Shown: positions 41 through 34,298 of the stretch, one piece after another
How the letters are laid out: every line of letters begins with the position of its first letter
How positions within the stretch are numbered: the stretch's first letter is position 1
IMG/VR virus record: IMGVR_UViG_3300008107_000418
Coordinates: 1 to 36,781 of that record
Direction: 5' to 3' (one strand)
DNA length: 36,781 nucleotides
Source: a virus
Position numbers and translations under genes: made by a program
The notes under the pieces: generated by a model
Seen by the model: the letters and a program-made list of their open reading frames with translations, nothing else
What the model was told of the DNA's origin: nothing
Database searches by the model: none

Positions 41-264
41 TTTTGCCGCAGGCAAAAAATAATTAAAAATACTTTGTACAAAAGTGTCCGCTAAGGACCT
101 TTTGGACACCTATAGTATAGTGAGAGGCGAAATAATCGGAGCCTCTCCACACACTAGCAGCGACCCTTGGGGTCGCACCCTAAGAGAAGCCCTAACCTTC
201 GGCTTCGTTTAGACTACGCCTACGGTTAGGAGATAAGCCCGAAACTTCCATACTTTCGTTTCGG
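41..264 (+). promoter_or_regulatory. Structured leader before the terminase gene, six inverted repeats
   Basis: The first 265 bases hold no credible gene. Six inverted repeats follow one another: 41-47/51-57 (7 bp, loop 3), 84-89/104-109 (6 bp), 122-128/141-147 (7 bp, loop 12), 160-166/170-176 (7 bp, loop 3), 191-197/224-230 (7 bp, loop 26) and 239-245/258-264 (7 bp, loop 12). Two overlapping TATAGT boxes at 111-121 could be a -10 element, but no good -35 lies at the right distance. An AGGAG at 228-232 is the only Shine-Dalgarno-like sequence before the terminase start at 266; its first three bases (228-230) lie in the fifth stem. Possible roles are an untranslated regulatory RNA leader, a packaging recognition site next to terL, or both. 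The repeats are seen directly; the roles are inference. Confidence 0.6.
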
Positions 265-265
265 T

Positions 266-2134
266 ATGCCTATGGAGAGAAAAAGAACAACTGCTGCTAG
301 CCATCGAAGCGATGCTATCAAGAAGCAAATTATTGAATTTTTAATGGAGGGGTACTCCGTCCAACGAGCCATGGATGCCGTTGGCCGTAGTATCAAAACC
401 TACGAATACTACCGAAAGATGGACCAGGAGTTCTCGACCCAGGTAGATAAAGTCCGTAGTATGACTGCCCGTGGAGAAATTGGCGGGGCTAGAGGGGAAG
501 TACCACCCTTCCCAGAGTTCTCAGAGAAATATCTAGGCACCAAGGTATTTAAGCACCAAGAGCATTGGATTGACCTACTTGAGGGTAGGCAACCTTCGGA
601 TGTTCATCCTGCCATTACCTTTGAAGAGGGTAGCCCAGACCTACTGATTGTTAACACCCCTCCAGAACACGCAAAGTCCACGACCATTACGGTCAACTAT
701 GCTGTCTATCGGATATGTCAGAACCCTAACATCCGTATCATGGTAGTCTCAAAGACTCAGGCCATGGCTCAGAAATTCCTGCTCTCCATTAAGAACAGAC
801 TCACACACCCTAAATATCAGGATTTGCAACTTACCTTTGGTCCGCCAGGGGGATTCCAAAAAGGGTCTGATTCATGGAAGCAGGATTTAATTTACCTATC
901 CTCCGAGTCTCGTGACTCAGGCGAAAAGGACCCTACCGTACAGGCTATCGGTGTCCGTGGTCATATCTACGGTGCCCGTGCCGACTTAATTATCATGGAC
1001 GACTGTGTTGACCATACCAACGCCCATGAGTACGAGAAGCAGATTGACTGGATTCAGTCCGAAGTTATGTCCCGTATTGACAACGATGGTGGTCGCCTAC
1101 TGGTTATCGGTACCCGCCTTCGTCCAAGGGACTTGTACTCTGAACTACGCGACCCTATTCGCTACCCAGACGAAGAATCTCCATGGACTTACTTCGCACA
1201 ACCTGCAGTTTTAGAATTTGACGAGGACCCTGACAAATGGGTAACACTCTGGCCTAAGACCAACATGCCACCCGTATCTGGTAAGGGAGTACCTGACGAT
1301 GACGGGCTGTATAGCAAGTGGGATGGACCCGCACTTCACAAGAAGCGCTCCCGTATATCCCCAAATCTATGGGCAATGGTTTACCAGCAACAGCAGGTAC
1401 ACGAAGATTCAGCATTTCCAAGCACCGCAATCAAGGGTGTTATCAATGGCGCTCGCAACTTTGGAATTATTCCAAGGGGTAAGAACGGCGTTCGCTACAA
1501 CGGTATGGATGGATTGATTGTTGTAGCAGGACTAGACCCAGCAGGCTCTGGTTATACCGCAGCCGTATGCCTAGCACTTGATGTTTCTACACAGAAGCGT
1601 TATCTGCTAGATGTATCTAACAAGCCTGGCATGAAGCCAGATGAGATACGAGAACTGATTAAAGGCTGGACAGATAAATATCGAGTTTCTGAGTGGCGAG
1701 TTGAGAAGAACGCTTTTCAAACAATGCTCACTCAGGACCGTGAGGTACGGGAATACCTGTCGTCACGGGGTGCAATTTTACGCGAACATCATACGGGTCA
1801 AAACAAATGGGACACCAACTTCGGAGTTGCATCCCTGACGACCCTCTTTCACGGTTGGGAAGATGGCAGAGCGCTTATTGAGTTCCCATCAACCCATGCA
1901 TCAGAAGGTTTAAAGACTCTTATTGAGCAACTTGTAACCTGGTACCCAGATGCACCTAAGTCGCAAAAGACAGATACCGTCATGGCTTTCTGGTTTGCTG
2001 AACTTGGCTGCCGAGACAGGCTTACAAACGCATCAAACTTTGCAAAAACACACAATCGTATGAATATGTTTCATACAAAGTACGACCAATCACGACAGAT
2101 AACTGTCAACTTAAATGACTATAACTATTCATAG
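266..2134 (+). CDS. terL: Terminase large subunit with N-terminal HTH-like segment
   Basis: This is the ATPase-nuclease that pumps and cuts phage DNA at the portal during packaging. Residues about 20-50 look like a helix-turn-helix, a DNA-contact role usually given to a separate small terminase. The ATPase domain shows a variant Walker A, TPPEHAKST (131-139), Walker B LIIMDD (241-246) and a coupling motif IGTRL (281-285). The nuclease domain has acidic residues D424 (GLDPAGSG), E480 (VEKNAF) and D570 (TDTVMAFW). At 622 residues it is slightly long for the family. The ATG at 266 lacks an SD at normal linear distance; see the leader entry. A second in-frame ATG is at 272. No separate small-subunit gene is seen in the window. 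The family call is firm; the fused recognition role is inference. Confidence 0.93.
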   Translation: MPMERKRTTAASHRSDAIKKQIIEFLMEGYSVQRAMDAVGRSIKTYEYYRKMDQEFSTQVDKVRSMTARGEIGGARGEVPPFPEFSEKYLGTKVFKHQEHWIDLLEGRQPSDVHPAITFEEGSPDLLIVNTPPEHAKSTTITVNYAVYRICQNPNIRIMVVSKTQAMAQKFLLSIKNRLTHPKYQDLQLTFGPPGGFQKGSDSWKQDLIYLSSESRDSGEKDPTVQAIGVRGHIYGARADLIIMDDCVDHTNAHEYEKQIDWIQSEVMSRIDNDGGRLLVIGTRLRPRDLYSELRDPIRYPDEESPWTYFAQPAVLEFDEDPDKWVTLWPKTNMPPVSGKGVPDDDGLYSKWDGPALHKKRSRISPNLWAMVYQQQQVHEDSAFPSTAIKGVINGARNFGIIPRGKNGVRYNGMDGLIVVAGLDPAGSGYTAAVCLALDVSTQKRYLLDVSNKPGMKPDEIRELIKGWTDKYRVSEWRVEKNAFQTMLTQDREVREYLSSRGAILREHHTGQNKWDTNFGVASLTTLFHGWEDGRALIEFPSTHASEGLKTLIEQLVTWYPDAPKSQKTDTVMAFWFAELGCRDRLTNASNFAKTHNRMNMFHTKYDQSRQITVNLNDYNYS

Positions 2135-2142
2135 AACTGGAG

Positions 2143-3972
2143 GTGGGTGCGATTAAATCTTTAGACGAAATTAAAGATAACTTCCTCGTTGTCAAGCAAG
2201 TCTTTGCCGAGCGCGACAGTCGCATGGAAGATGTCCTCCTTGTTCGCAAGGGTCGTATGCGCGATGTGTACCCTGACCTATTCCCAGACGGACCGTTTGA
2301 GAACCCTATCGTTGCGAACATGGTTGATATTTCAGCCCGCGACCTATCAGAAGTAATCGCACCACTACCTGCATTTAACTGCAACTCACCTACTATGGTT
2401 TCTGAGAAGGAACGCAAGAAGGCTGACAAGCGCGAAGAGATTGTTAACGGAATCGTTGACTTCTCTGACTTGCAGACCCAGATGTTTAACGCAGCAGACC
2501 GCTATGTAACCTACGGATTCGTACCTGCACAGGTTGAATATGACCTAGATGCCCAGATGCCACGCATCCGTTTCTTAGATTCCTACGGTTCATACCCAAT
2601 GATTGACCGCTTTGGTCGAGTTCAGTATTTCTATCAGCGTATTCAGAAGTCTGTTAGCGAATTGATGGCTGCATACCCAGAGTATGCCCACATCATCTAC
2701 GACAAAGACGAGAACACCGACTCATCCCAGATTGAAGTTGTGCGTTACCACGACAAAGACCAAGATGTTTTGTTTATTCCATCACGCAATAACTTGATTA
2801 TTGACCGAGCAGCCAATGCTCTTGGCGAAGTGATGGTTCGTGTTGTACAGCGCCCATCTATTGACAGCCAATCACGCGGACAGTTTGACGATGTACTTGC
2901 AATTCAGGTTGCAAAGGCTCGTTATGCACTGCTTTCTCTTGAGGCAGCGACTAAGGCAGTACAGGCACCTATCGTTGTGCCACGCGATGTATCAGATTTG
3001 GCCCTTGGCCCAGATGCTGTTATCCAAACAGAGCGCCCACAGGATGTACGCCGTGTATCTATTGAGATTCCTGGTGGAACATTTGCTCAACAGCAGGTTC
3101 TCGAAGGCGAACTCCGTCTAGGTTCACGCTATCCTGAGTCTCGTACAGGTAACATTGATGCTTCAATCGTTACAGGCCGTGGTGTTCAGGCACTTATGGG
3201 TGGTTTTGATACCCAGATTAAGACAGCACATGCAATGTTTGCTCGTGCTTTTGTCGAATTGCTCAGCCTTGCACTTAAGGTTGACGAAAAGATTTTTGGT
3301 GATGTAGAGAAGAACCTACGCGGTACACGCAACGGTACTCCTTACAACATTAAGTACAAGCCAAAGCGTGACATTGACGGTGATTACACTGTTGATGTTC
3401 AGTATGGCTTGATGGCAGGACTTGACCCTAACCGCGCCTTGGTCTTTGGACTACAGGCACGCGGTGACAAGTTGATTTCACGCGACTTCCTTCGCCGTCA
3501 AATGCCTTTCTCCTTCAATGCAACACAAGAAGAAGAGAAGGTTGACACCGAAGAACTACGCGATGCCATGAAGCAAGCGATTGCTTCCTATGCACAGGCT
3601 ATTCCAGCGCTTGCATCTCAAGGTCAAGACCCATCGGATATTCTCTATAAGTTATCTTATGTGATTAACGAACGCCAGAAGGGTACCTCTATCGAGGTTG
3701 CGGTTTCTGATGCGTTTAAACCACAGAATCCCCCACCTGGTGAGTTGACCCCTGAGGGTGTAAGTCCCGAAATTATCGGGCAAGCAGGCGCGGTCCCTCC
3801 AGGTGAGGGGCAACTTCCCGAAGGTCTAAGTCCAACTGGTCGTATGGTTGGCGTAGCACCTGGACAGATTGCACCTGGTGGCAGACCAGATGTTCAATCC
3901 TTACTAGCAAGTTTAACCCAGCGAGGCGAACCTAATTTGCAGGCATCGCTAATCAGACGACTACCAGCGTAA
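2143..3972 (+). CDS. Portal protein
   Basis: The predicted 609-residue product is called portal from its place directly after terL, its length, and its content: an N-terminal helical region, a middle part rich in short beta and turn segments, and a Gly/Pro-rich, Gln-rich tail from about residue 525. Portals form the dodecameric channel at one capsid vertex and dock the terminase. The start is odd: GGAGG (2139-2143) touches the GTG at 2143, too close for normal initiation. The in-frame ATT at 2152 lies 8 bases after GGAGG, and the next in-frame ATG, at 2224, has no SD. GTG at 2143 is kept with doubt. I see no diagnostic catalytic motif, so the call rests on synteny. Confidence 0.8.
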   Translation: MGAIKSLDEIKDNFLVVKQVFAERDSRMEDVLLVRKGRMRDVYPDLFPDGPFENPIVANMVDISARDLSEVIAPLPAFNCNSPTMVSEKERKKADKREEIVNGIVDFSDLQTQMFNAADRYVTYGFVPAQVEYDLDAQMPRIRFLDSYGSYPMIDRFGRVQYFYQRIQKSVSELMAAYPEYAHIIYDKDENTDSSQIEVVRYHDKDQDVLFIPSRNNLIIDRAANALGEVMVRVVQRPSIDSQSRGQFDDVLAIQVAKARYALLSLEAATKAVQAPIVVPRDVSDLALGPDAVIQTERPQDVRRVSIEIPGGTFAQQQVLEGELRLGSRYPESRTGNIDASIVTGRGVQALMGGFDTQIKTAHAMFARAFVELLSLALKVDEKIFGDVEKNLRGTRNGTPYNIKYKPKRDIDGDYTVDVQYGLMAGLDPNRALVFGLQARGDKLISRDFLRRQMPFSFNATQEEEKVDTEELRDAMKQAIASYAQAIPALASQGQDPSDILYKLSYVINERQKGTSIEVAVSDAFKPQNPPPGELTPEGVSPEIIGQAGAVPPGEGQLPEGLSPTGRMVGVAPGQIAPGGRPDVQSLLASLTQRGEPNLQASLIRRLPA

Positions 3973-4274: not shown

Positions 4275-4727
4275 ATGGCAGAGAAAGCAAATCAAAATTT
4301 CCAAGTATCCGCAACAGGCGGTGCAGGTTCAGGTGGACAAGCAGCACAGTATGCTGCAGGTATTGACAACGCAGGAGATTTTTATGAACTTCAAACTCAA
4401 GCCACAATGTCAAAGTCTGGCGTACAGTTGCCAAATAGAGGCAATCCTGTTACACCTAAGATGCCAGTTGGCGATATTGTTCCTCTCAATGCTCCAACAC
4501 TCTACCCAGAAGAAGGAGTAGATACAGGCGCAGCACTTGGACCTAATGCAGGTCAAGAAGTTATGGCAGCACCCGCCATGCTTGCAGCACAGAACAACGA
4601 AGATATTGCAGCACTTGCTGCTTACTTGCCTTTCTATGCAAAGGTAGCAGAATCCCCACAGGCATCTAATGCCACTCGTAACTGGTATCGCTACATCCGT
4701 AGCCAGATACAGGGACAGGCTCAATGA
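4275..4727 (+). CDS. Hypothetical virion-region protein, 150 aa
   Basis: I do not recognise this family. The N-terminal 40 residues are rich in Gly, Ala and Gln and look disordered. The C-terminal half is helical and Ala-rich, ending in a basic, aromatic segment (NWYRYIRSQIQGQ). The start has GAGGTAATC in front of it. Its stop overlaps the next ATG (ATGA at 4724-4727), so it is translationally coupled to the giant gene. Position and coupling suggest a virion component or a chaperone for the giant protein; a scaffold is possible but unsupported by motif. Confidence 0.7.
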   Translation: MAEKANQNFQVSATGGAGSGGQAAQYAAGIDNAGDFYELQTQATMSKSGVQLPNRGNPVTPKMPVGDIVPLNAPTLYPEEGVDTGAALGPNAGQEVMAAPAMLAAQNNEDIAALAAYLPFYAKVAESPQASNATRNWYRYIRSQIQGQAQ

Positions 4728-7700
4728 GTTGGGTTGAAAACCTTGGCAAGATGGCAAAGGGAGCCATTGACTTTACTGGCTTGCCTGGACTATTCAAAGA
4801 TTTAGCAACTGCTGGTTCAAATGATGACCCGTGGTATGTAGATGGTATTAACCTTGCTAAGAACACAGTCAAGGTTGCAACCACACCAGTTCGTGCTGCT
4901 GTAGGTGGACTACTTGCAGTTGGTGAAGCATCATACGAATTAGGTGGCAAGGTACGCCGTGAAGGTGTTGAAGCAATCCTTGACCAACCTTTTATGTACA
5001 ACAAGTTTAAGAACGAGAACGAGTCATACGCCGACTACACCGCACGCGTTGAGCGCGAAAAAGAAAACATCAGTTTGGGACAGGCGACTCTCTCAGTTCT
5101 TTCTCCTGGAAAAAACTCTGGCGATAAGTCAGGCTGGCTCCAGGACTGGACAGATAACAACCTTAAGTTTTTATCTGCTGGCTTTGACCTGTTTGACCCA
5201 ATGGACCGTGAGGCTGCGTTTCAGAACCAGTACACAGGTAAGTTCCTTTCAGGTATTCAGGACATTACTGCATCAACACTTATTGACCCATTAACCTTTA
5301 CAGGTTTTATTGGCAAAGGTGCAGTTATTATTTCTAAGGCTCCGATGCTAGATACAATTTCTGGCAAGACTGCTCGTGCAGTATTTGGTAAGTTTGCTAT
5401 GACAGAAGAGCGCCTTGACAATATCCTTGTTCAGGCCCTTGATGGTAAAGGCGAAGCACTTACCGACATTAACTTTCTTACAAACTCAAATGCTAGAGAA
5501 CAGTACGAATACTGGCGTAAGAAGAAAGTCACAAACCCTGATGCTATGGCATACCTCTTTGGTCGTGCCCAGTCAAGGGAAGAAGTTGTTGACACCTTCC
5601 GCGCTGTTATGTACAAGGACACAGATGCAATCTCTAAAATTGCTGATGCTGACTCTGAGGCTGGTTTAGTATTTGATGCGCTTAATGATGTGCCACATCC
5701 ACATCGTATGTACCTTGAGGGTAAGTCCGATGGGGATTTAATTACCTCACCTAAGTACAACGAGGTATTGCAGGGCTACATTGCTAAAGCAGCAACAGAA
5801 GATGACCGCTTCCGTGCAGCACTTGAGACTGTACAAACTGGCGGTCAATTCAAGTACGGATTTAGCCGTGGACCTTGGGAGGGTAAACTTGCCGAGAAGT
5901 CAAAGGCTAAGGCTGCTCGTACATTTGCTGAACCAGAATCTGTCTTAATACAAAAGACAAGCCTGCATCCAGTCATTAAGGTAGTTAACTACTTCAAGGA
6001 CGAGATGCCAAGCGGTGTCTTTAATGTTAACGATGGTGACTCATACACAGAATTTAACGCTTTCCTTCGTGAGGTCAATGACCTATCTAAGGGTTCATTT
6101 GGCGCTCGTGCTGCACAGTATGCAGACGAGTACCTTGGTGCAGCATCTGCTGGCGAGCGCAATGGAATTATCCAGCGTGCTGAGAAAGAATCCTTTGCGG
6201 TTCTCTTTCCTAACTACGATGCAGCAACTATTGATAGCCTTTATGCAATCTTTGACTATCGCCGTGCTTCCCGTATTAAGGCCCACCGCGACCAAGGCTT
6301 CGTCTCATACCTTGAGAATGGTCAGGTAGTTAATGCGGTATCACCTGTGCTACAGCGTGAGTCTGCTAACTACTCAATCATTGCAGATATGCGTAAGTTA
6401 TCCCGTGCTATTCGCTCACACGAAGGTGTGCTGCCAGGACTACTAGACGGCATTGATGTTCAGGATTTGACTCTTCGTACAGATAAGGGACTTGCAGCCC
6501 TTGGTACTATCAATGACATCTTTAAGACTTCTGTACTTATGCGCCTTGGATACACCGTGCGTAACCTTACCGAAGCACAACTATCTATGTTGGCTAAAGG
6601 ATTTGCTATGCCAGCAATGGTTGCAGCAGGTGGCAAGGATGCAGTCAACCGATTCTTTAACAACCGTAAGGTTGGATTCAATCGTCTTATTGACAATGTA
6701 AATGTACGCGCTGGTCGCATAGATGATGTGCCAACAATGCAGTATGCGTTTATGTCAGAGGTGGACAAACTCCGCGCTATTGACATGAGCCGTAAGCAAC
6801 TAGCCAAGGCAATTACTACTCGCATTGGTGAACTTGAGCGCGATGCATTTAAGTTACGCTTCACCGCAGGCGTTGGTCCGTTAACTGTTGAGGATGAGGT
6901 TCGCACCCTTAAGGGCGTACTTGCTGATTTAGAGTCAGTCACTCTTTACCACGGCTCACCTGAGGCTGCATTTAAATTTGACCAGTCACGCTCCATTGCA
7001 ATGTCTGCTTCTCCTGCTATTGCTCGGCGCTATGCAGAAGGCGGAATGGTTGTTTCTGTTGAACAGTACATCCCAACTAAGACTGGTCGCCCTGGTCGTT
7101 TGGGTGAACAACCATTAAGCAAGGCTGGCACACTAGCACCGCTAGATGAAGTAAAATTGATTCAACGCCTAAATCCAAATATGGAAAATACCTATGGTGT
7201 TGCATTAGTTAAAACAGACTATATTAAAAAGTTTATAGAATTTGACCGTGCTGGTTTAGAAGCAACTCCTGGTTATAGTGCTGAAACTATTGCAAAGATT
7301 ACTGATGATTTAAAGTCTGGCAAAGGATTTTCAAACCCTTTAGTTCTTGAGTATTATGTTAGTGATAGTGGTGAGTTGCTTCTTAAACTAGGAGAAGGTA
7401 ATCATAGATTACAAGCAGCATTAAATGCTGGACTTGATTCTGTTCCAGTTGCTATTGTTAAAGCATATAAATCAACAAAAAATTTAAAAGGTACTGGTAT
7501 AACTTCAAAAATTATTCCAGATAAAATGGGATATATTCCTGGCAATCCAAATCCTCGTGATTTGCTAGAACCAGATGTAATGAAGAGTTTGACAAGAGAA
7601 CCTAGAGTTCCTTCTGCCAAGCGTGAAGATGTACTTAATGAAGCAATGCTTAAGATGCAATCAGATATGATTGATGCCGTTAACAGCGGTGCTAAGGTTG

Positions 7701-10700
7701 AAATTAAGCGTGGTTCAAAGTGGGTTGAAGTTAAGTCTATTGACTATGAAACACTTGTACTAGCCCTTGAAACAGATGAGTTTGAAACAGTTCTATTCAA
7801 GGATTGGTCACGCCGACCAGTATTTCGCGTAAATCAATCTAAGGGCAATGTTCAGCCAATGCGTGTTTATGGACCGTCATTGTTTATGACCCGCTGGAGC
7901 GAACTGCCTGCAGATGTACAGTCTTTGTTCGGTGGAAAGAACGCTAACTTTAAGGCATGGATAAAGTCCAAAGGCTGGCAAGACCAGAAGGACCCCATCT
8001 ATAAGTACCTTCGTGAGAATGGATATGGAACTGCTGCTGTCCTTGACGACAAGCGTGCAGGTGGATTGTCCTACATCGTATTGCCAGAGGCAGTTAATAA
8101 GCAGGGTCGTACCCGCGAAGTAACTCGCACAGTTTCAGAAATGGAACAGCGTGCGCAGATTCAGGCTGCTGAGGAGTTACCAGAAGAGGGTCTTGAGCAA
8201 CTTATGGCTACTCCTAAGGAGCGCCGTAATGCTCTCAAGGAAGCACGCAAAGCAAAGCGTAGGCCAAAGGCATCTGTATCTCCTTATTACGATAAGGACA
8301 ATGTAAACGCCATGATTAACAATGGTGTTGAAGATGCTGCAGAAAACCTTGCTCGCCTCTACACAGCAACACATGCACACCTTGATGATATGTCTGAGCG
8401 CCTTGGCGCTGCTATTACTCGTGCTGAGTCAAACGCTATCAAGCAGCGCACAGGCTATGGCTACATGGATGTTGAGGCTAATGGCGTTAAATACAATGTC
8501 CCAGAAGTTTTCCAAGATGCATCATGGTTCATGGGTCGTACCTCAGCCGAGGACACATGGAACGCCATGGTTGGTACACAGGAGATGGCATTTAGTGTGG
8601 GCATTGGTGCCCGTACAGTTGCACCTGTAAAGCCAAATGACCCACGCTACTTTGAGGCTTGGGGCAACATTTTGAACATGCACTTCCGTGACCCTGAGAC
8701 AGGAATCATGGACCCTGTTGTTCGAAGGATTCTTGACGGCCAAACAGATGATGACATCCTTCGCTGGTTTACTCGCTCCTTTGAGGGCCGTAAATATGCC
8801 AACGATACATACACAACACCACGCCAAGCATTTGGATTTACTGCCCTTAAGGGTGGCGAACTAGACGATGACTTACTTGAGAAGATTAACATCACTCGTG
8901 GTGCAGTCAAGGTTTATATTCCAGATGAAGAAACCGCTTTAATCCTTAGCCGAGTTCAAGACGATGGCAAGGTTATTTCAGGTGGAGACATCCAGAATTG
9001 GCTACGCGATAGATTTGGTTCTAACCCAGAGAATCTTCCAGAGATTAACGGGTTGCTTGTAACCACATCTAAGGAATACCGCGACCAAGAAAACATTATT
9101 GACATCTTTAACCGCCGTGTTATGCGCTTCCTTGGTTCACTACCAGAAGATGTATTTGCTCGTCATCCACTTGCAAAGGCTACATATAACAGACGAGTTA
9201 AGATTAACCTTGAGCAGTTAGCAGCAGGCAAAGGCTCTGACAAACTAACTGGTGAAGAGGTTGAGCGTGCTATCCGTGGCGCTCGTGAAGAGGCTCGCCG
9301 TGAGGTAGAGCGCACACTCTTTACGATTGTTCGCCGTAGCCGTGCATCATCTAGCCAAGTAATGCAGTTGATGTTCCCGTTCTTTGCAGCCTACGAAAAC
9401 ACTATGAAGCGTTGGTCAGGCATCATTGCCGAAAACCCAATGGCCGTAGCAACCGCTGGTCGTACTATTGCTCAGGTGGTAAATGGTCAGACCGTTATTG
9501 ACCAAGATGGCAACCGCATCACAGATGCTAGAAAGTTGTCAGAAGATGGTATGGCTAACCTTGTAGTACAAGTGCCAGAAGGATTTATCAAGTCACTTCC
9601 TAAGGAATGGCAAGAGGTGGCAGAAAACGCATTTAAGAGTGTAAGCATCCCGCTTTCATCTCTTGATGTGATTACTCAAGGTCAGCCTGGAAACCCAGGA
9701 TTTGGTCCATACGCAGTCCTTCCAACATATCTGATTGTTCGTGGTCGCCCTGAACTAGAAGATGCGTTTAGACCGCTGTTCCCAGCAGGTCAGCCACAAA
9801 AGGTTTCTGACTTGTTCACACCTGCAGCACTCCGCCGTCTTACCACAATGTGGACACAGGATGAACTGTATGTGCGTACATATAACCAGATGCTTCGCTA
9901 CGAGACTTACAACTTTAACAGCGGTAAGCGTGTTGACCAGCCTACGGCAAAAGAAATTGAAGATAAGACAAACAAGTTCTTCATGCTCCGTGCTTTAGGT
10001 TCAATCTCGCTACCTGTTGCGATTAGCCCAGAGATGGATTTCTATCAGGCTACATACCGCCAGTTCCTTACACAGTACGGACCAGGCGAGGCAGAGGCTA
10101 AGTTCCTTGAGATGTACCCAGATTACTTTGAGGCAACTATCAGCCTTTCTAAGTCACCTGGTGGGCTTGAGGCTAACCTCGATACTGTTCGTAACTTAAG
10201 AAAGCATCAAGGGCTTATGGCTGCTGCTGAGGCATCAGATAACTCAGAACTTATTGGATTCCTTGCTAACGACTTTGATGGTCAGTACACATTTAGTCAG
10301 GCTGCATACCAATGGCAATATCGCCAAGGTGCATATCCTGGCTCAAAGAATACATACCGTCAGAATCGTGCCCCTGAGGAACTATTGCGCGATGCTAACA
10401 TCAAGCGTGGTTGGACACAGTTCAACTCACTTATGGGTCAGATTAACACCTACAAGATTCAGAACGGTATCGTCTCTGATACTGACCCAGCCTTAGATGG
10501 AATCAACGCTGCTAAGAAACTATGGCTTCGCCAGATGGCTGAGACAAACCTTGAGTGGTACTCAGAGTTCATCTCACCAGACAGAGGTAAGTATGAGCGC
10601 CGTGCGCAGGTACTTGAGAAGGCTTTATCTGACAAGTCATGGATGGCACAGAACGGTAATCGTCCAGTAGTTAAGGCAATGGCTGTCTATCTTGATGCTC

Positions 10701-10885
10701 GTAAGCAACTAGGTTCATTGCTACAACAACGCGAAAAGGCAGGCGGTTCACGCATGCTTACTGCTAAAAGCAATGCTGACATTGTGTATGTACTTGACCA
10801 AGTACGCACACAACTCGTTGCAGAAAGCCCAGAGTTTGAAGAGTTCTTGAATCGTTATTTCATAAATGATACGGTGGTGGTATAA
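4724..10885 (+). CDS. Giant 2053-aa polyvalent-type internal virion protein (ART-like and ParB-like segments)
   Basis: This single gene takes one sixth of the window. It lies between portal and capsid genes, where injected internal virion proteins are often encoded. Around residues 741-790 there is an ADP-ribosyltransferase-like segment (LYHGSPEAAF, then a SPAIARRYAEGG helix and a beta strand), as found in phage polyvalent proteins. Around 875-915 there is a ParB/sulfiredoxin-like core with GEGNHRLQAAL and VPVAIVKA. The flanking regions, about 1-735 and 965-2053, are long, helical and charged, with no fold I recognise. A hydrophobic stretch near 1545-1555 (MQLMFPFFAAY) recalls helices seen in other large phage ejection proteins. 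Known polyvalent proteins are carried in the virion and delivered with the DNA to counter host defences; applying that here is inference. The ATGA start is coupled to the upstream gene. Confidence 0.75.
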   Translation: MSWVENLGKMAKGAIDFTGLPGLFKDLATAGSNDDPWYVDGINLAKNTVKVATTPVRAAVGGLLAVGEASYELGGKVRREGVEAILDQPFMYNKFKNENESYADYTARVEREKENISLGQATLSVLSPGKNSGDKSGWLQDWTDNNLKFLSAGFDLFDPMDREAAFQNQYTGKFLSGIQDITASTLIDPLTFTGFIGKGAVIISKAPMLDTISGKTARAVFGKFAMTEERLDNILVQALDGKGEALTDINFLTNSNAREQYEYWRKKKVTNPDAMAYLFGRAQSREEVVDTFRAVMYKDTDAISKIADADSEAGLVFDALNDVPHPHRMYLEGKSDGDLITSPKYNEVLQGYIAKAATEDDRFRAALETVQTGGQFKYGFSRGPWEGKLAEKSKAKAARTFAEPESVLIQKTSLHPVIKVVNYFKDEMPSGVFNVNDGDSYTEFNAFLREVNDLSKGSFGARAAQYADEYLGAASAGERNGIIQRAEKESFAVLFPNYDAATIDSLYAIFDYRRASRIKAHRDQGFVSYLENGQVVNAVSPVLQRESANYSIIADMRKLSRAIRSHEGVLPGLLDGIDVQDLTLRTDKGLAALGTINDIFKTSVLMRLGYTVRNLTEAQLSMLAKGFAMPAMVAAGGKDAVNRFFNNRKVGFNRLIDNVNVRAGRIDDVPTMQYAFMSEVDKLRAIDMSRKQLAKAITTRIGELERDAFKLRFTAGVGPLTVEDEVRTLKGVLADLESVTLYHGSPEAAFKFDQSRSIAMSASPAIARRYAEGGMVVSVEQYIPTKTGRPGRLGEQPLSKAGTLAPLDEVKLIQRLNPNMENTYGVALVKTDYIKKFIEFDRAGLEATPGYSAETIAKITDDLKSGKGFSNPLVLEYYVSDSGELLLKLGEGNHRLQAALNAGLDSVPVAIVKAYKSTKNLKGTGITSKIIPDKMGYIPGNPNPRDLLEPDVMKSLTREPRVPSAKREDVLNEAMLKMQSDMIDAVNSGAKVEIKRGSKWVEVKSIDYETLVLALETDEFETVLFKDWSRRPVFRVNQSKGNVQPMRVYGPSLFMTRWSELPADVQSLFGGKNANFKAWIKSKGWQDQKDPIYKYLRENGYGTAAVLDDKRAGGLSYIVLPEAVNKQGRTREVTRTVSEMEQRAQIQAAEELPEEGLEQLMATPKERRNALKEARKAKRRPKASVSPYYDKDNVNAMINNGVEDAAENLARLYTATHAHLDDMSERLGAAITRAESNAIKQRTGYGYMDVEANGVKYNVPEVFQDASWFMGRTSAEDTWNAMVGTQEMAFSVGIGARTVAPVKPNDPRYFEAWGNILNMHFRDPETGIMDPVVRRILDGQTDDDILRWFTRSFEGRKYANDTYTTPRQAFGFTALKGGELDDDLLEKINITRGAVKVYIPDEETALILSRVQDDGKVISGGDIQNWLRDRFGSNPENLPEINGLLVTTSKEYRDQENIIDIFNRRVMRFLGSLPEDVFARHPLAKATYNRRVKINLEQLAAGKGSDKLTGEEVERAIRGAREEARREVERTLFTIVRRSRASSSQVMQLMFPFFAAYENTMKRWSGIIAENPMAVATAGRTIAQVVNGQTVIDQDGNRITDARKLSEDGMANLVVQVPEGFIKSLPKEWQEVAENAFKSVSIPLSSLDVITQGQPGNPGFGPYAVLPTYLIVRGRPELEDAFRPLFPAGQPQKVSDLFTPAALRRLTTMWTQDELYVRTYNQMLRYETYNFNSGKRVDQPTAKEIEDKTNKFFMLRALGSISLPVAISPEMDFYQATYRQFLTQYGPGEAEAKFLEMYPDYFEATISLSKSPGGLEANLDTVRNLRKHQGLMAAAEASDNSELIGFLANDFDGQYTFSQAAYQWQYRQGAYPGSKNTYRQNRAPEELLRDANIKRGWTQFNSLMGQINTYKIQNGIVSDTDPALDGINAAKKLWLRQMAETNLEWYSEFISPDRGKYERRAQVLEKALSDKSWMAQNGNRPVVKAMAVYLDARKQLGSLLQQREKAGGSRMLTAKSNADIVYVLDQVRTQLVAESPEFEEFLNRYFINDTVVV
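7140..7610 (+). other. AT-rich island inside the giant gene (ParB-like domain)
   Basis: From about 7140 to 7610 the composition drops clearly in GC, and codons such as TTA, ATA, AAA and AGA become frequent, while the reading frame stays open. The change covers residues about 806-962, including the GEGNHRLQAAL motif. Flanking sequence returns to the codon style of the rest of the gene. This is the pattern expected of a recently inserted domain. Boundaries are approximate and judged by eye. Confidence 0.6.
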
Positions 10886-14545: not shown

Positions 14546-15718
14546 ATGGCATATACAGATACCTCGTCTATGGCTGGTCTTGTCAAGACCGCTTATGACC
14601 GTTATGTAGAATTTGCCCTCCGCGATACGCCGATGATTCGTGCAGTAGCGGACAAGCGCCCAGTTCAGCAGGCGATGCCAGGTTCAAGCGTTGTATTCTC
14701 ACTTTACAATGACTTGGCTGCAGCAACTGCTGCTCTCTCAGAGACAACCGATGTAGATGCAGTAGCACTACCAGATGTTTCTACAGTATCAGTAACTCTC
14801 AACGAACAGGGTAACGCAGCACTTGCAACCCGTAAGTTGGAGTTGCTCTCACTCTCAGATGTTGACCCAGCAATCGCTGACATCATCGCTTACAACATGG
14901 CTGACTCACTTGACGACATTGCACAGCAAGCGCTCGTCAACGGCACCAATGTTATCTACTCAGGTGCAGCAACATCAACAGCAACAGTTACAGCAGGTAT
15001 GACTATCACATCTGCTAACCTTCGTAAGGCAGTTGCTAAGTTGCGCACAAACAAGGCTGTTCCTCGTGCAGGAAGCCTCTACTGGACAGGTATCCACCCA
15101 GAAGTTTCACACGACCTTCGTGCTGAGACAGGCAATGTCGGCTGGCGTGATACTCACCAGCACACAGATGCATCACTTGGCAACCTCTTCGCAGGTTCAA
15201 TCGGTACATACGAAGGTGCTTTCTTCATTGAAAACCCACGCATGTTCTCAGCCAAGGCAGGTGCAGACCAGACAGCACTCGCTACAACAGCAGTAACTGT
15301 TGCTGGTACATCAGCAGGCTTCACCTTCGGTGTTGCTTCAACATCAGTCATCGCATCTCGTGCAGAGGTCGGCGACAAGATTTCAGGAACAGGCATCGCT
15401 TCTAGTGCAAAGATTTCTGCAATCACAGTTTCAGGTAGCACAGCAACAATTACTGTTGACACAGCAAACACTGCTGCAGTTACAGCAACAACTGTTGTCA
15501 CAGTCACACCTGTAACACGCGTATTCGACACAATCCTTGCTGGAAAGCAGGCATTGGCTGAGGCTGTTGCACAAGAGCCATCAGTTGTTATCGGACCAAT
15601 CACCGATAAGTTGATGCGCTTCCGTCCAATCGGATGGTACGGTGTAATCGGATGGTCACGCTACCGCGAGGCTGCTCTATACCGCATCGAATCAGGTTCA
15701 TCAATCGCTGCTCTCTAA
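14546..15718 (+). CDS. Major capsid protein, N4-gp56-like, with inserted beta domain
   Basis: 390 residues, preceded by a strong SD (AGGAGGTGA). The segment from about residue 70 to 140 (TVSVTLNEQGNAALATRKLE through ADSLDDIAQQALVNGTNVIY) matches the layout of the N4-gp56 family of HK97-fold capsid proteins. Conserved C-terminal elements include KLMRFRPIGWYGVIGWSRY. Residues about 236-322 are an extra block rich in Ala, Ser, Thr and Val, with VGDKISGTGIASSAKISAI and alternating TVT strands. This looks like an Ig-like or similar beta insertion that could be displayed on the capsid surface. It is probably the most abundant protein of the virion. The family call rests on pattern recognition. Confidence 0.85.
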   Translation: MAYTDTSSMAGLVKTAYDRYVEFALRDTPMIRAVADKRPVQQAMPGSSVVFSLYNDLAAATAALSETTDVDAVALPDVSTVSVTLNEQGNAALATRKLELLSLSDVDPAIADIIAYNMADSLDDIAQQALVNGTNVIYSGAATSTATVTAGMTITSANLRKAVAKLRTNKAVPRAGSLYWTGIHPEVSHDLRAETGNVGWRDTHQHTDASLGNLFAGSIGTYEGAFFIENPRMFSAKAGADQTALATTAVTVAGTSAGFTFGVASTSVIASRAEVGDKISGTGIASSAKISAITVSGSTATITVDTANTAAVTATTVVTVTPVTRVFDTILAGKQALAEAVAQEPSVVIGPITDKLMRFRPIGWYGVIGWSRYREAALYRIESGSSIAAL

Positions 15719-16294: not shown

Positions 16295-16849
16295 ATGACA
16301 GCCATCGTAGGTATTCAGTTAGATGACTGTGCGGTAATCGCAGCAGACTCACTGATTACATACAATGGTAGAAAGTATGAGTCATCTGCCATGCTCAAGA
16401 TATTTGAGAAGTCAGGTTATATCTATGGCTTCGCAGGAGATTCACAGGCTGCAGACATTGCAGGATACAACTGGACTCCACCAAGAATTGCCTACACAAA
16501 GGACCCCGTTGAGTTCTTAGTAGGAACAGTAATACCATCGCTACGCAAGGCAATGGCAGACAATGGCTACATCGTAGATGCCTCCGATAAGGAGTCAGGA
16601 TGGGATGCCTTGTTCGTAATCAACGGCAAGATATTTGAGGTTGACCATTACTTCTCTTGGTCACAAGATGACCGTGGCTACTACGGAGTAGGAGCAGGCG
16701 GTGCCGTAGCGCTAGGCGCTGTAGTAATGGCACAGCCTACGGACATTAACTCCGCTAAAGAAGCAGCAGAGAAGGCTATACAGATTTCCGCAGACTATAA
16801 CGATTCGGTAGGCGGAGCAGTTCAACTCAAAGTCCAAAGGAGAAAATAA
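16295..16849 (+). CDS. Proteasome/HslV-like Ntn hydrolase
   Basis: 184 residues with the plan of a proteasome beta/HslV subunit. After removal of Met1 the chain starts with Thr (TAIVGIQLDDCAVIAADS), the N-terminal nucleophile position. The Asp of AADS then falls at 17, as in proteasome beta subunits, and a Lys (MLKIF) lies at 34, one off the usual Lys33. GFAGDSQAAD follows as in HslV (GFAGG). The C-terminal half has FVINGKIFEVDHYFSW, YYGVGAGGAVALGAV and a helix AKEAAEKAIQISADYN, again matching family order. No ATPase partner such as HslU is in the window. It lies four genes after the capsid gene, where head proteases or assembly factors would fit. It could process capsid proteins or cleave host proteins; the fold call is good, the role is inference. 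Confidence 0.8.
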   Translation: MTAIVGIQLDDCAVIAADSLITYNGRKYESSAMLKIFEKSGYIYGFAGDSQAADIAGYNWTPPRIAYTKDPVEFLVGTVIPSLRKAMADNGYIVDASDKESGWDALFVINGKIFEVDHYFSWSQDDRGYYGVGAGGAVALGAVVMAQPTDINSAKEAAEKAIQISADYNDSVGGAVQLKVQRRK

Positions 16850-20509: not shown

Positions 20510-20967
20510 TGTCATTTGCATTTCAACGCCGTAGAGGAACAACAGCACAGCACGCTTCCTTTACTGGATTACTAGCAGAAGTAACCGTAGATACCGACAA
20601 AGAAGTTGTTGTCGTACACGATGGAACAACCGCTGGTGGTTTTCCGCTATCTAAGCAGCGTAACTTTATCTCTGCTCAGACAGGCACAACATACACTCTT
20701 GCGCTTACTGATGCAGACAATGTGGTTACAGCCAACAACGCTGGGGCAATTACAGTAACAGTTCCACCATCAGTCTTTTCTGCTGGCGATAGAATCACTG
20801 TCATCCAAAAGGGTGCTGGTCAGGTTACATTTGCTCAGGGCGCTGGAGTTACAATCAACTCTACTGGTGCTACAGCAACTGCCCCTAAGTTGAGAACCCG
20901 CTACTCAGCAGCAACAATCGTGGCTGAATCTGCCACAGTATTCTACATTGTGGGTGACATCGCCTAA
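20509..20967 (+). CDS. Small tail/fibre protein with Mtd-like N-terminus
   Basis: I start this at the ATG at 20509 (TAATG overlap with the fibre stop) rather than a TTG 15 bases earlier. The first 45 residues, FQRRRGTTAQHASF through VVVHDGTTAGG, match the N-terminal module seen in many phage tail proteins, including major tropism determinant-type proteins. Residues 60-150 form a beta-rich end (VTVPPSVFSAGDRITVIQKG) like small tail-spike tips. Likely a fibre-associated receptor or adaptor protein. 152 residues. Confidence 0.7.
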   Translation: MSFAFQRRRGTTAQHASFTGLLAEVTVDTDKEVVVVHDGTTAGGFPLSKQRNFISAQTGTTYTLALTDADNVVTANNAGAITVTVPPSVFSAGDRITVIQKGAGQVTFAQGAGVTINSTGATATAPKLRTRYSAATIVAESATVFYIVGDIA

Positions 20968-21545
20968 TGTCCCCAATACTAACTGGAGTTATTGCCTCTG
21001 GTATTAGTGGCAATCTTACACCACCCTGGAGTCCTGAGGGTGCATACGATGCATTGGCTACAGTAACTGTACCTGCAGGTGGTGCAGCAACAGTCACTTT
21101 TGCTGGTATTCCAAATACCTATAAGCATTTACAAATTAGAGCCATTGCAAAAAATACTTTAACAAATGTTTATACAGCAAATTTTTATATGCGCTTTAAT
21201 GGTGATACTGGAACAAACTATAGTAATCACGCAATATATGGAACAGGTTCTTCAGTTGTACCAAACATACCTACTGGAGCAAATCCATCTTTTGCAATTT
21301 GGGGTCTTTCTGGTTCTTCTCAATTTGCTGGTCATATTATTGATATATTAGATTATGCAAACACAAGTAAAAATAAAACAACTAGAATTTTAATGGGAAC
21401 AGATACCAGCAGTGGTGGTTATCTTGGCCTAGAATCAGGTGCATGGATGAATACTTCTGCTATAAATTCAATTTCTTTTTCAATGGGTGATGGCACACAA
21501 ACTATTGCACAATACTCACAATTCTCACTATACGGGGTGAAGTAA
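20967..21545 (+). CDS. Short adhesin paralogue lacking the Gly-rich tail
   Basis: 192 residues. An N-terminal 20-residue lead is followed by a beta domain from ALATVTVPAGGAATVTF to the end, which is FSQ..FSLYGVK. This domain recurs in the next two genes, each time closing with FSLYG, but here the chain stops at that point. The stretch from about 21110 to 21520 is visibly AT-rich compared with its surroundings. Probably a receptor-side tail protein. TAATG overlap at the start; the next gene begins 2 bases after its stop. Confidence 0.7.
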   Translation: MSPILTGVIASGISGNLTPPWSPEGAYDALATVTVPAGGAATVTFAGIPNTYKHLQIRAIAKNTLTNVYTANFYMRFNGDTGTNYSNHAIYGTGSSVVPNIPTGANPSFAIWGLSGSSQFAGHIIDILDYANTSKNKTTRILMGTDTSSGGYLGLESGAWMNTSAINSISFSMGDGTQTIAQYSQFSLYGVK

Positions 21546-21546
21546 T

Positions 21547-22860
21547 ATGCCAAATACTTATGTTGAATTAGACAAAGTTACCGCAAGTGGAACTTCTACT
21601 ACAACAGTTAACTTTACAAACATCCCATCTGGTTATACAGATTTGGTTATTGTTGCTAATTGCGGTATCTCAAACGCTGACTATTTAAATCTTCGTGCTG
21701 GAAATGGCTCTGTTAATACTGGGTCAATCTATTCTCAAACAGTTCTTGAAGGAAATGGTTCGTCAGCGACTTCTAGTAGAGGCGGTAGCCGTACTGCATT
21801 TTGGCCTTCTTGGACTACTACCATTATGCCAACATCTCTTACTGCAAACTATATTATTAACATAATGAATTATTCCAATACGACAACAAATAAAACTTTT
21901 ATGTCTAGGGGCAGTGTTACCTCTGCTGGACTTGATGCCAGTGCCTGTACATTTAATTCAACTGTTGCTATCAATACAATATCTTTGTTTCCAAATTCAC
22001 AAGATGGCAGATACTTTCTTGCAGGCTCCACATTCTCACTATATGGAATTGCCAATGCTGACCAAGGTGCTGCCAAAGCAACTGGCGGTATCATTACAGA
22101 AGATGCTAATTACTGGTACCACACCTTCGGTGCATCAGGTGCATTTGTACCTAAGCAAAATTTAACTTGTGATTACCTTGTCATCGCAGGCGGTGGCGGA
22201 GGTGGTTCCTTTGCAGGCGGTGGTGGTGGTGCTGGTGGTTACAAAACTGCTGATGGTTTCTCTGTAACAGCCAATACTAACTACACAGTAACAATCGGAG
22301 CAGGTGGCGCTGGTGGCGCTTATACAAGTGGAACTAACGGCGTTAATAGCGTGTTTGGTTCTATCACTTCAACTGGTGGTGGCGGTGGTGGAGGAACCAA
22401 TTTTAATACAAACGGTGGCGCTGGTGGCTCAGGTGGTGGTGCTTCGGGGTCCTATAATTTTGGGACTGGAACAGGTGGAGCAGCATCCCCTTCAGGTCAA
22501 GGCAATGCTGGTGGTAGCACTTCAGGTGGTCTTTCTAATCTTGCATACGCTGCTGCTGGTGGTGGTGGTGCAGGTGCCGTTGGTGGTAGCGCAAACTCAA
22601 CTCTTGTAGCAGGAGCAGGTGGGGCAGGACTTGCTTCATCAATTAACGGAACTTCTGTAACTCGCGCAGGCGGTGGTGGTGGTGGTTCTGACCCTAAATC
22701 AGGCGGAGCAGGTGGAGCAGGTGGTGGTGGAGAAGGTGGTTTAACCACAGCATCTGCTGGAACTGTGAACACAGGTAGCGGTGGCGGTGGTATTTGGAAT
22801 CCCAATTTCACCGCTGGTGCAGGTGGCTCAGGTATTGTCATCGTTAGATATGCGAAATAA
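21547..22860 (+). CDS. Adhesin-like tail protein with Gly-rich C-terminal domain (copy 1)
   Basis: 437 residues. The N-terminal beta domain (1-165, from YVELDKVTASGTSTTTVNF to FSLYGIA) is paralogous to the neighbouring genes. A connector (ITEDANYWYHTFGASGAF) leads to a Gly-rich domain from about residue 215 with many GGGGGG and GAGG runs, ending GGSGIVIVRYAK. Gly-rich domains of this kind are known at the tips of phage fibres, where polyglycine helices may carry host-range loops. AT-rich from about 21590 to 21990, richer in GC after that. Confidence 0.8.
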   Translation: MPNTYVELDKVTASGTSTTTVNFTNIPSGYTDLVIVANCGISNADYLNLRAGNGSVNTGSIYSQTVLEGNGSSATSSRGGSRTAFWPSWTTTIMPTSLTANYIINIMNYSNTTTNKTFMSRGSVTSAGLDASACTFNSTVAINTISLFPNSQDGRYFLAGSTFSLYGIANADQGAAKATGGIITEDANYWYHTFGASGAFVPKQNLTCDYLVIAGGGGGGSFAGGGGGAGGYKTADGFSVTANTNYTVTIGAGGAGGAYTSGTNGVNSVFGSITSTGGGGGGGTNFNTNGGAGGSGGGASGSYNFGTGTGGAASPSGQGNAGGSTSGGLSNLAYAAAGGGGAGAVGGSANSTLVAGAGGAGLASSINGTSVTRAGGGGGGSDPKSGGAGGAGGGGEGGLTTASAGTVNTGSGGGGIWNPNFTAGAGGSGIVIVRYAK

Positions 22861-33271: not shown

Positions 33272-33658
33272 ATGGTAAAGAACTCATCATTTGATTTAGA
33301 CTTTGGATTCGGTAGAAAAGGCGAGCAGTTAGTAGAAGAGTTACTTACAGAGGGAAAGAAAGTTGAAGTCAAGCGTGACCGCAAATGGTGGGTTACTAAT
33401 AATCTTTACATTGAAATTGAATGTTGGTTTATGAAGTCCAAGTCTTGGGAACCATCGGGCATCATGGTAACTGAGGCAGAGTATTGGGCTTTCGTATTAG
33501 AGAAGGGCGTACTCATAGTACCTACGAGCCATGTGTTGTACGCAATCAAAGAGTTCGGGCGTGAGATTACCTGCGAGATTCCCCCGAATAAAAGCAAGGG
33601 CTACCTGATTACAGTTGATGACCTACTAATGGCGATGAGGAAATTAAAGAATGAGTGA
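33272..33658 (+). CDS. Conserved PD-(D/E)XK-like protein, 128 aa
   Basis: The core FGFGRKGEQLVEELLTEGKK, then VEVKRDRKW and NLYIEIECW, resembles a conserved group of small phage proteins with an ExK nuclease-like centre (E-V-K) and a further EIE. The rest (YWAFVLEKGVLIVPTSHVL) is also typical. An active nuclease is likely but not shown. The ATG follows directly on the palindrome GTCTTAAGAC with no SD. The stop overlaps the sigma-like gene by 8 bases. Confidence 0.75.
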   Translation: MVKNSSFDLDFGFGRKGEQLVEELLTEGKKVEVKRDRKWWVTNNLYIEIECWFMKSKSWEPSGIMVTEAEYWAFVLEKGVLIVPTSHVLYAIKEFGREITCEIPPNKSKGYLITVDDLLMAMRKLKNE

Positions 33659-34298
33659 CGAGCAAGATAAGATATGGGAAACAATCTACGCAGTAGCAAA
33701 GCAGGTTGCCAGTCGTGGTAATCGTATCCATCGTGGCCTTGTAACTACCGATGATTTGTATCAGCACATGTCCTTGTGGGCGCTGGAACATTGGCACAAG
33801 ATAGAACAATGGGAAGCAGAGGATAGTCTTAAGTACAAACTACGCAAGACTTTCTTCAATGAGGCACAGAAGTATGCAGCAAAAGAGAGACAGCGTTACT
33901 CGCGCTCGCCCATGTCTGACAGTTTCTACTACTCACATGAGGTATTGCATGAACTATTGCGTGATGTGTGGACACACCAAGGCTGGACAGATACTCCTGA
34001 CTTAAGTAATGAATTTGTATCACGCTCATCTAAACCAAGCGAAGGTGGCAATCGTATGGCCTTGCTATCTGATGTGGCTTCGGGTCTTAAGAAACTAAAT
34101 GAGGCTGACCAAGAGTTGTTGCGCTTGCGTTATGACGATGGTGGCATGGAACTTGGTGCGCTCGCTGAAACCTACAACATATCCGAAGAGGCTATGCGTA
34201 AGAGAGTCAAGCGTGCTTTGGTTAAACTACAAGACAGACTCGGTGGAGAACAGCCAGTATGGAACCGCCGACCAAGGAAAGGTGAGGTACCAGAATGA
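33651..34298 (+). CDS. Sigma-70-family-like factor, 215 aa
   Basis: The N-terminal half (LVTTDDLYQHMSLWALEHWH, then LRKTFFNEAQKYAAKERQRY) has the layout of sigma region 2. The C-terminal segment (LLRLRYDDGGMELGALAETY, NISEEAMRKRVKRALVKLQD) is a clear region-4-type helix-turn-helix. Phages use such factors to redirect host polymerase to their own promoters, typically late ones. The C-terminus is basic. Alternative: a sigma-like DNA-binding protein without polymerase function. Overlaps neighbours on both sides (8 and 4 bases). Confidence 0.75.
   Translation: MSDEQDKIWETIYAVAKQVASRGNRIHRGLVTTDDLYQHMSLWALEHWHKIEQWEAEDSLKYKLRKTFFNEAQKYAAKERQRYSRSPMSDSFYYSHEVLHELLRDVWTHQGWTDTPDLSNEFVSRSSKPSEGGNRMALLSDVASGLKKLNEADQELLRLRYDDGGMELGALAETYNISEEAMRKRVKRALVKLQDRLGGEQPVWNRRPRKGEVPE

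What the first reader, a model, noticed from the sequence alone, without database searches (positions are those of the whole stretch)
6940..7610. AT-rich ParB-like domain spliced into a giant polyvalent-type virion gene
A 2053-residue virion-region protein carries an ART-like segment and then a ParB/sulfiredoxin-like segment in DNA of clearly different composition (about 7140-7610). The frame is kept at both ends. This looks like recent domain capture in a protein that may be injected with the genome. ART and ParB-like modules in polyvalent proteins are linked to conflict with host defences.
Basis: partly seen in the sequence, partly recalled or inferred. Interest (0 to 1): 0.65.

Follow-up and report, generated by a model that had tools for sequence, protein, structure and literature searches.

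The report
Swappable enzyme slot in phage protein
A giant protein encoded among the particle genes of freshwater phages has one internal position where close relatives carry entirely different plug-in domains (a ParB/sulfiredoxin-like domain here; an ADP-ribosylating enzyme, a coiled coil or nothing elsewhere), which suggests that these phages trade the tools they probably deliver to the host.

Summary
Residues 797-963 (window 7112-7612) of the 2053-aa protein are an in-frame AT-rich module (GC 0.33 against 0.47; GC3 0.05-0.2) with a ParB/sulfiredoxin fold. About 70 slot-spanning IMG/VR relatives show that this is the only strongly variable position of the protein. At exactly this site they carry a ParB-like domain (14), a complete R-S-E ADP-ribosyltransferase (15), a coiled coil (19), two other domains (5 and 2) or a 7-22-aa linker (15). 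Slot content is nearly unlinked from the backbone: at least 27-30 changes on trees of 60-65 rows, and 97-99% identical backbones carry different contents. The window's nearest relative (93%) has an empty slot. Near-identical modules sit in diverged backbones, so modules move horizontally. They evolve under purifying selection, and no neighbouring gene co-varies. 'Recent capture' is only partly right: this is one allele of an old, repeatedly exchanged slot, and all ParB and ART modules are AT-rich, so composition does not date the event. Presence in the virion, injection and enzyme activity are inferred. Best reading: an exchangeable effector slot in a podovirus ejection-type protein, a new variant of the polyvalent/polymorphic-effector theme.

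The parts
4724..10885 (+). Giant ORF, 2053 aa; host protein of the slot; lies between portal and major head protein
   Evidence: phrog_10618 E 2.8e-62; hhalign to Streptomyces podovirus gp9, 100% and 98% probability outside the slot region
7112..7612 (+). Slot content in this phage: ParB/sulfiredoxin-like module, residues 797-963, AT-rich
   Evidence: relatives with 93-99% identical flanks lack or replace exactly this stretch; composition
7193..7489 (+). Core of the ParB/Srx fold (residues 824-922)
   Evidence: AlphaFold2 pLDDT about 64-92, mostly 79-92; VIA Z 5-7.6 to Srx, ParB, KorB, SerK, SbnI
7394..7408 (+). EGNHR motif (residues 891-895), invariant in all ParB modules; probable nucleotide-phosphate site
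   Evidence: alignments A1, A5, A10; role inferred from the Srx GxHR / ParB GxRR motif (own knowledge)
6926..7111 (+). Constant left flank, residues 735-796: LYHG (His743), RRY (Tyr770), anchor TGRPGRLG; weakly ART-PolyVal-like
   Evidence: A3 invariant columns; Pfam ART-PolyVal E 0.046 in L011 only
7613..8092 (+). Constant right flank, residues 964-1123, ending ENGYGTAAVLDDKRAGGLSYIVLPEAV; possible C-terminal half of a split ART-like domain
   Evidence: conserved in all slot classes; VIA match of an ART-type toxin catalytic domain across both flanks (model 52..434, Z 5.3), weak
266..2134 (+). Terminase large subunit
   Evidence: phrog_38 E 2.3e-67
2143..3972 (+). Portal protein
   Evidence: phrog_104 E 2.8e-22
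14546..15718 (+). Major head protein
   Evidence: phrog_1357 E 2e-76

Best explanation
The giant protein is a podovirus virion (ejection-type) protein with one internal, exchangeable effector slot after residue ~796. In this phage the slot holds a ParB/sulfiredoxin-fold module (residues 797-963), most likely a nucleotide-binding enzyme (NTPase and/or nuclease). In sister phages the same slot holds a complete R-S-E mono-ADP-ribosyltransferase, a coiled coil, two other domains, or only a short linker. Modules are exchanged between co-infecting relatives, most simply by homologous recombination in the conserved flanks. Inferred mechanism: the protein is packaged, ejected with the DNA, and the slot domain acts on host or rival targets at the start of infection; turnover reflects changing host targets or defences. 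Shown here: slot polymorphism at a single site, horizontal exchange, purifying selection on modules, intact ART catalytic set, ParB/Srx fold, gene neighbourhood constant whatever the slot holds. Inferred: virion location, ejection, catalytic activity, target, selective cause.
For: Single variable site: column occupancy 0.93-1.0 along nearly the whole 2053 aa, but 0.38-0.49 for 801-950. Six slot classes in 70 slot sequences. At least 30, 28 and 27 state changes on left, right and joint flank trees against shuffled means of 38, 38 and 35. Different content on near-identical backbones: L125 empty / L061 ParB 99.3%; L135 empty / L138 ART / L137 ParB 98.2-98.8%; L219 ART / L223 X 98.5%; window ParB / L011 empty 93.1%. 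DNA identity is mostly 95-100% beyond ~75-225 nt of the slot in the close pairs. Horizontal movement: L008/L061 modules 92% nt, dS 0.20, flanks 70% nt, dS 1.0-1.3; L131/L138 ART 88% against 60-62%; a 65% identical ParB module in an 1879-aa protein related only by profile. dN/dS 0.16-0.52 in modules. ART: PF03496 E 4e-14 to 4e-16, Alt-like phrog_832 E 3.5e-9, R, F-x-[SA]-T-[ST] and ExE kept in all 15. ParB/Srx fold. Late-gene context between portal and major head protein. Homologue in Streptomyces phage Abafar, a podovirus by microscopy. Neighbour genes the same for ParB, ART, coiled-coil and empty alleles.
Against: No virion proteomics for any member and no enzymatic data. The ParB module is recognised mainly by fold; Pfam ParB_N is below its cut-off. 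About half of the slots hold a coiled coil or a linker, so no enzyme is needed for viability. The persistent AT-richness of ParB and ART modules is not explained by exchange among phages of 40-47% GC alone. No recombination enzyme or site was identified; elevated synonymous identity at the left anchor is not unique along the flank.
Confidence: 0.6

Rival explanations
1. Recent one-off capture of a foreign AT-rich domain by this phage. The module came from a low-GC donor and has not yet ameliorated.
For: GC3 0.05-0.2 in the module against about 0.4 around it; the nearest relative L011 has an empty slot.
Against: The same module class sits at the same site in 13 other slot sequences, and in all those measured it is AT-rich against its own flanks. 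Its closest copies (L005, L041, 90% aa) lie in sister phages. No donor was found in 84,980 bacterial and archaeal genomes or in INPHARED phages.
Confidence: 0.12
2. 'Trojan horse' reading: slot enzymes, at least the ARTs, are toxins against eukaryotic grazers, released after lysis, as proposed for VIP2-like ARTs of freshwater phages (PMC6802176).
For: The ART alleles match VIP2, CdtA and iota-type ARTs in the PDB and such ARTs were reported in freshwater phages.
Against: Here the ART is an internal module of a 2.1-kaa late-region protein, swapped with a ParB-like domain or nothing, and not a secreted toxin gene. It also matches the Alt-type RNA polymerase ADP-ribosylase family (phrog_832). The ParB alleles make little sense as grazer toxins.
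Confidence: 0.1
3. The slot is a structurally tolerant linker where domains accumulate without effector function, for example as spacers adjusting the length of an internal virion protein.
For: Empty and coiled-coil alleles are common (34 of 70) and the rest of the protein is unaffected.
Against: ART alleles keep the full catalytic set over 35-87% identity; ParB alleles keep EGNHR; dN/dS 0.16-0.52; two of the classes are recurrent enzyme-type folds and not random sequence.
Confidence: 0.12
4. Toxin-immunity (MuF/Rhs-type polymorphic toxin) system: the module is an antibacterial toxin with a cognate immunity gene.
For: Shared pool of toxin-type domains at one position of a virion-region protein; MuF toxins are the known parallel (PMC5576092).
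Against: The slot is internal and not C-terminal. No nearby ORF co-varies with slot content in six compared genomes. MuF toxins were reported only in temperate phages; no integrase turned up among the 24 window ORFs scanned (the other ORFs were not scanned).
Confidence: 0.06

Closest known systems
Polyvalent proteins of phages and conjugative elements (Iyer et al. 2017, PMC5512222)
   Same: Very large multidomain late-region phage protein; ART and ParB/Srx domains are among the typical modules; predicted to be packaged and delivered.
   Different: Here a single defined slot exchanges whole enzyme classes, or nothing, between otherwise near-identical backbones. [quoted passage not shown] No Pfam domain at all was detected in the whole window protein.
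MuF polymorphic toxins of temperate phages (PMC5576092)
   Same: Virion-region protein with a pool of exchangeable toxin-type domains, ADP-ribosyltransferases among them.
   Different: Internal slot and not C-terminal; no MuF domain; no adjacent immunity ORF; phage probably virulent (inference).
T4 Alt (virion-packaged RNA polymerase ADP-ribosyltransferase)
   Same: R-S-E ART, packaged and delivered with the DNA; the ART alleles here match phrog_832.
   Different: Alt is a stand-alone head protein; here the ART is one allele of a slot inside an ejection-type protein, and the window carries ParB/Srx instead. Delivery is not shown here.
gp9-type giant protein of Streptomyces podoviruses (Beephvirinae: Immanuel3, Abafar)
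   Same: Homologous over residues 114-744 and 1331-2049, same place in the genome.
   Different: The region with the slot (window residues ~745-1330) does not align there: fewer than 100 aa stand in place of almost 600.
phrog_2579 'ParB C-terminal domain' proteins of mycobacteriophages
   Same: The X allele of the slot is the same domain (E 3.7e-32; tblastn hits in 150 Mycobacterium phage records).
   Different: There the domain belongs to another protein annotated hypothetical or ParB C-terminal domain; here it sits in the slot of sister phages.

Membership tests
ParB/sulfiredoxin superfamily (the window's slot module) | alpha+beta ParB/Srx core fold | tested here: met
   Foldseek PDB ranks 1-39 all Srx/ParB/KorB/Noc/SerK/PadC, probability 0.72-1.00, E 0.008-0.32; VIA Z up to 7.6, 84 residues, rmsd 2.8. 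E-values are modest and Z is below 8
ParB/sulfiredoxin superfamily (the window's slot module) | curated sequence match to ParB_N (PF02195) | tested here: inconclusive
   13.2 bits against cut-off 26.3, E 0.093; PHROG ParB-like partition families E 1.6e-4 to 7e-3 in the window and L129 modules
ParB/sulfiredoxin superfamily (the window's slot module) | conserved Arg/His phosphate-binding motif | tested here: met
   EGNHR invariant in all ParB alleles; the Cys of true sulfiredoxins is absent (Asn in its place), so it is not a sulfiredoxin enzyme
DdrB-like ParB domain of polyvalent proteins | DdrB-lineage sequence features (Asp/Asn at end of strand 2, extra helix with Tyr) | tested here: inconclusive
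   no ddrB-ParB match among Pfam hits up to E 1; the extra helix was not assigned
R-S-E ADP-ribosyltransferase (ART allele of sister phages) | Arg, S-T-S and ExE catalytic set | tested here: met
   invariant R80, T104, E170, E172 and near-invariant S105 in 15 sequences; PF03496 above cut-off in L002, L006 and L120
ART-PolyVal / H-Y-D ART (constant flanks) | curated match to PF18760 and catalytic H-Y-D | tested here: inconclusive
   H743 and Y770 invariant; 14.9 bits against 31.2 in one relative, none in the window; third acidic residue not assignable
Polyvalent proteins | large multidomain protein with several unrelated effector domains, encoded with virion genes | tested here: inconclusive
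   size and late-gene context met; only one effector domain securely identified per protein
Polyvalent proteins | packaged and delivered into the host | not testable with these tools
   no proteomics; the paper on the Abafar homologue holds none
MuF polymorphic toxins | N-terminal MuF domain | tested here: not met
   no Pfam family at all in the window protein
MuF polymorphic toxins | C-terminal variable toxin domain followed by an immunity ORF | tested here: not met
   variable domain internal (797-963 of 2053); no co-varying neighbour ORF

The most novel reading that the evidence does not exclude
The constant flanks on either side of the slot together form one ART-like (H..Y..) domain, so every exchanged module (ParB/Srx, a second ART, coiled coil or nothing) is nested inside an enzyme of the ejected protein, and swapping the insert retargets or switches that enzyme. 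This would be an ejected enzyme with a swappable internal specificity domain, exchanged among lytic phages without immunity genes.
Probability: 0.18. Interest if true: 0.82.

Novelty: new variant of a known kind. Interest (0 to 1): 0.62.

Why it matters
Polyvalent and virion-delivered effectors are known mostly as static domain architectures. Here natural near-isogenic pairs (97-99% identical backbones differing by one module) show domain exchange at a fixed internal slot of a phage virion-region protein, with an empty allele as a built-in control. That makes testable what slot effectors do and what selects for their exchange. It also gives another reading for ADP-ribosyltransferases reported in freshwater phages, which have been interpreted as weapons against grazers (PMC6802176), and it places R-S-E ARTs in relatives of podoviruses, a group in which a survey found ARTs in only about 3% (PMC9503650).

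Tried and rejected
Donor search for the ParB module: none in genome contigs or INPHARED phages; the ART module gave only one remote hit in a Mycobacterium MAG and none in INPHARED. Sequence search of the PDB with the ParB profile gave only chance hits. Fold of the X module failed (pLDDT 40), so only its PHROG identity is used; hhalign of X against ART was not significant. Constant left flank against PDB: chance hits only; empty-slot constant region against PDB and PHROGs: nothing useful. A special DNA site at the junction: synonymous identity at the GRPG codons is 0.67-0.90 against a mean of 0.53, but other stretches are about as high, so no claim. Adjacent immunity gene: looked for and not seen. 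Assembly chimerism as the cause of the slot variation was considered and rejected: junctions are always in frame at the same site, in independent metagenomes and in contigs of up to 40 kb. Gain or loss in the window lineage cannot be told from the unrooted counts.

Full report
WHAT WAS CHECKED. The window is a 36,781-bp IMG/VR virus record. ORF 4724-10885 (+) encodes 2053 aa and lies between the portal (2143-3972) and the major head protein (14546-15718); terminase is at 266-2134. GC falls to 0.33 at 7140-7610 against 0.47 for the window, and codon third positions fall from about 0.4 to 0.05-0.2 GC over residues ~801-960. The only equally AT-rich stretch of this length is near 21,110.

EXACT BOUNDARIES. 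A scan of IMG/VR with the protein gave 51 relatives, and scans with the module and with each flank raised this to 69 distinct slot-spanning sequences plus one truncated. Relatives either have the module or have something else between ..TGRPGRLG (residue ~794) and ..KRxDVLNEA (residue ~966). The window module is residues 797-963, nucleotides 7112-7612. The window's nearest relative, L011, is 93% identical in the flanks and has nine residues (PTPEGGTIP) in place of the 167. Over the alignment of 51 full-length members, columns are 93-100% occupied nearly everywhere, but 38-49% occupied at residues 801-950. There is one slot.

WHAT SITS IN THE SLOT. Six classes: ParB/Srx-like (14 sequences), R-S-E ADP-ribosyltransferase (15), ~64-aa coiled coil (19), a domain X equal to phrog_2579 'ParB C-terminal domain' (5, E 3.7e-32), a further domain (2), and short linkers of 7-22 aa (15). 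The ART class passes the Pfam cut-off for ADPrib_exo_Tox (E 4e-14 to 4e-16; 2e-6 for the divergent L120), matches the Alt-like RNA polymerase ADP-ribosylase family (E 3.5e-9), and keeps R, F-x-[SA]-T-[ST] and E-x-E in all 15 sequences. The window module was folded with an alignment of 26 rows (mean pLDDT 72.5 over the region, mostly 79-92 in the module core). The first 39 Foldseek PDB rows are sulfiredoxin, ParB, KorB, Noc, PadC and SerK, and VIA Z reaches 7.6. EGNHR is invariant. The Cys of real sulfiredoxins is replaced by Asn (own knowledge of the Srx motif), so a nucleotide-dependent NTPase and/or nuclease like other ParB-fold effectors (PMC5512222) is the best inference.

EXCHANGE. On protein trees of left, right and both flanks the slot class needs at least 30, 28 and 27 changes (65, 65 and 60 rows), against 38, 38 and 35 for shuffled labels. 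Pairs with nearly the same backbone and different slot content include L125/L061 (empty/ParB, 99.3%), L135/L138/L137 (empty/ART/ParB, 98.2-98.8%), L219/L223 (ART/X, 98.5%), L128/L129 (empty/ParB, 98.1%), L010/L005 (ART/ParB, 97.6%) and L058/L033 (ParB/empty, 96.8%). At DNA level, identity in these close pairs is mostly 95-100% and drops only within about 75-225 nt of the slot, as expected from homologous recombination in conserved flanks. The reverse pattern also occurs: L008 and L061 share a module 92% identical in DNA (dS 0.20) in flanks 70% identical (dS 1.0-1.3), and L131/L138 share an ART 88% identical in flanks 60-62% identical. A 65% identical ParB module lies in an 1879-aa protein (L385) that is related to ours only by profile comparison. 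dN/dS within modules is 0.16-0.52, so modules are under purifying selection.

DEPTH. A second clade of giant proteins, about 26% identical N-terminally and 34% C-terminally, has the same slot after an LYHG..ERYA segment, holding either an ART or a short linker. More distant 1.7-1.9-kaa relatives carry a ParB-like domain in their middle. The Streptomyces podovirus homologue (Immanuel3 gp9, 1648 aa) aligns at residues 114-744 and 1331-2049 and has no equivalent of the slot region. The related phage Abafar is a podovirus by microscopy and predicted virulent, and its head protein is annotated N4-like. This supports, but does not prove, an ejection-type virion protein.

COMPOSITION. All 13 ParB and all 15 ART modules measured have lower GC3 than their own flanks (means -0.15 and -0.16); coiled coil, X, the further domain and linkers do not show this consistently. 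The AT-richness is therefore a property of these two module classes, kept while they circulate, and is not by itself a clock for capture in the window lineage. Why it persists is unexplained.

NO IMMUNITY GENE SEEN. In six genomes with ParB, ART, coiled-coil or empty slots the neighbouring genes (about 4.5 kb upstream, 8 kb downstream) are the same and none tracks slot content. With the internal position of the slot, this separates the system from MuF toxins, which have C-terminal toxin domains, mostly a small downstream ORF, and were reported only in temperate phages (PMC5576092).

THE CONSTANT FLANKS. His743 and Tyr770 are invariant. Pfam ART-PolyVal matches one empty-slot relative at E 0.046, below cut-off, and the window not at all. 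One ART-type toxin catalytic domain aligned structurally to model residues 52..434, that is, to both sides of the slot (Z 5.3). This suggests that the slot lies inside one ART-like domain, but confidence in the left flank of the model is low (pLDDT about 57-72) and it remains a hypothesis.

CONCLUSION. It is one allele of an old, single, internal, exchangeable slot in a podovirus ejection-type protein. The exchange is shown. Delivery and enzyme action are inferred. Closest known themes are polyvalent proteins (PMC5512222), MuF polymorphic toxins (PMC5576092) and T4 Alt. The ART alleles bear on reports of ADP-ribosyltransferases in freshwater phages, read there as anti-grazer toxins (PMC6802176), and on the low frequency of ARTs in podoviruses (PMC9503650). 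No paper describing this slot was found in the held library, but the searches were few.

Noticed in passing
window 21011-21780: Second equally AT-rich stretch (470-bp GC about 0.33), covering ORF 20967-21545 (192 aa, no Pfam or PHROG match) next to tail-fibre-type genes; possibly a variable host-recognition region.
   Followed up: partly
window 16295-16849: 184-aa protein of the HslV peptidase family (phrog_1040 E 1.1e-18; Pfam Proteasome E 1e-4) shortly downstream of the major head protein; L385 has a 180-aa ORF with a proteasome-like start upstream of its giant gene. Could be a phage protease or maturation enzyme.
   Followed up: no
L223, L207, L133, L139, L222 slots: X module equals the 'ParB C-terminal domain' of mycobacteriophage proteins (phrog_2579), so a domain annotated as ParB-associated elsewhere occupies the slot that ParB occupies in sister phages.
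   Followed up: partly
L007, L009, L013, L087 slots; L298-L353 downstream of the slot: The domain filling the slot in L007-type phages resembles a constant domain further downstream in the second clade of giant proteins (weak HMM matches, E 1e-5 to 1e-8), suggesting movement between positions.
   Followed up: no
L061: The giant gene is split into two ORFs (1516 and 576 aa) near residue 1485; frameshift or assembly error.
   Followed up: no
window 33651-34298: Phage-encoded sigma factor-like protein (phrog_354 sigma-K factor E 1.9e-28; Pfam Sigma70_r4).
   Followed up: no
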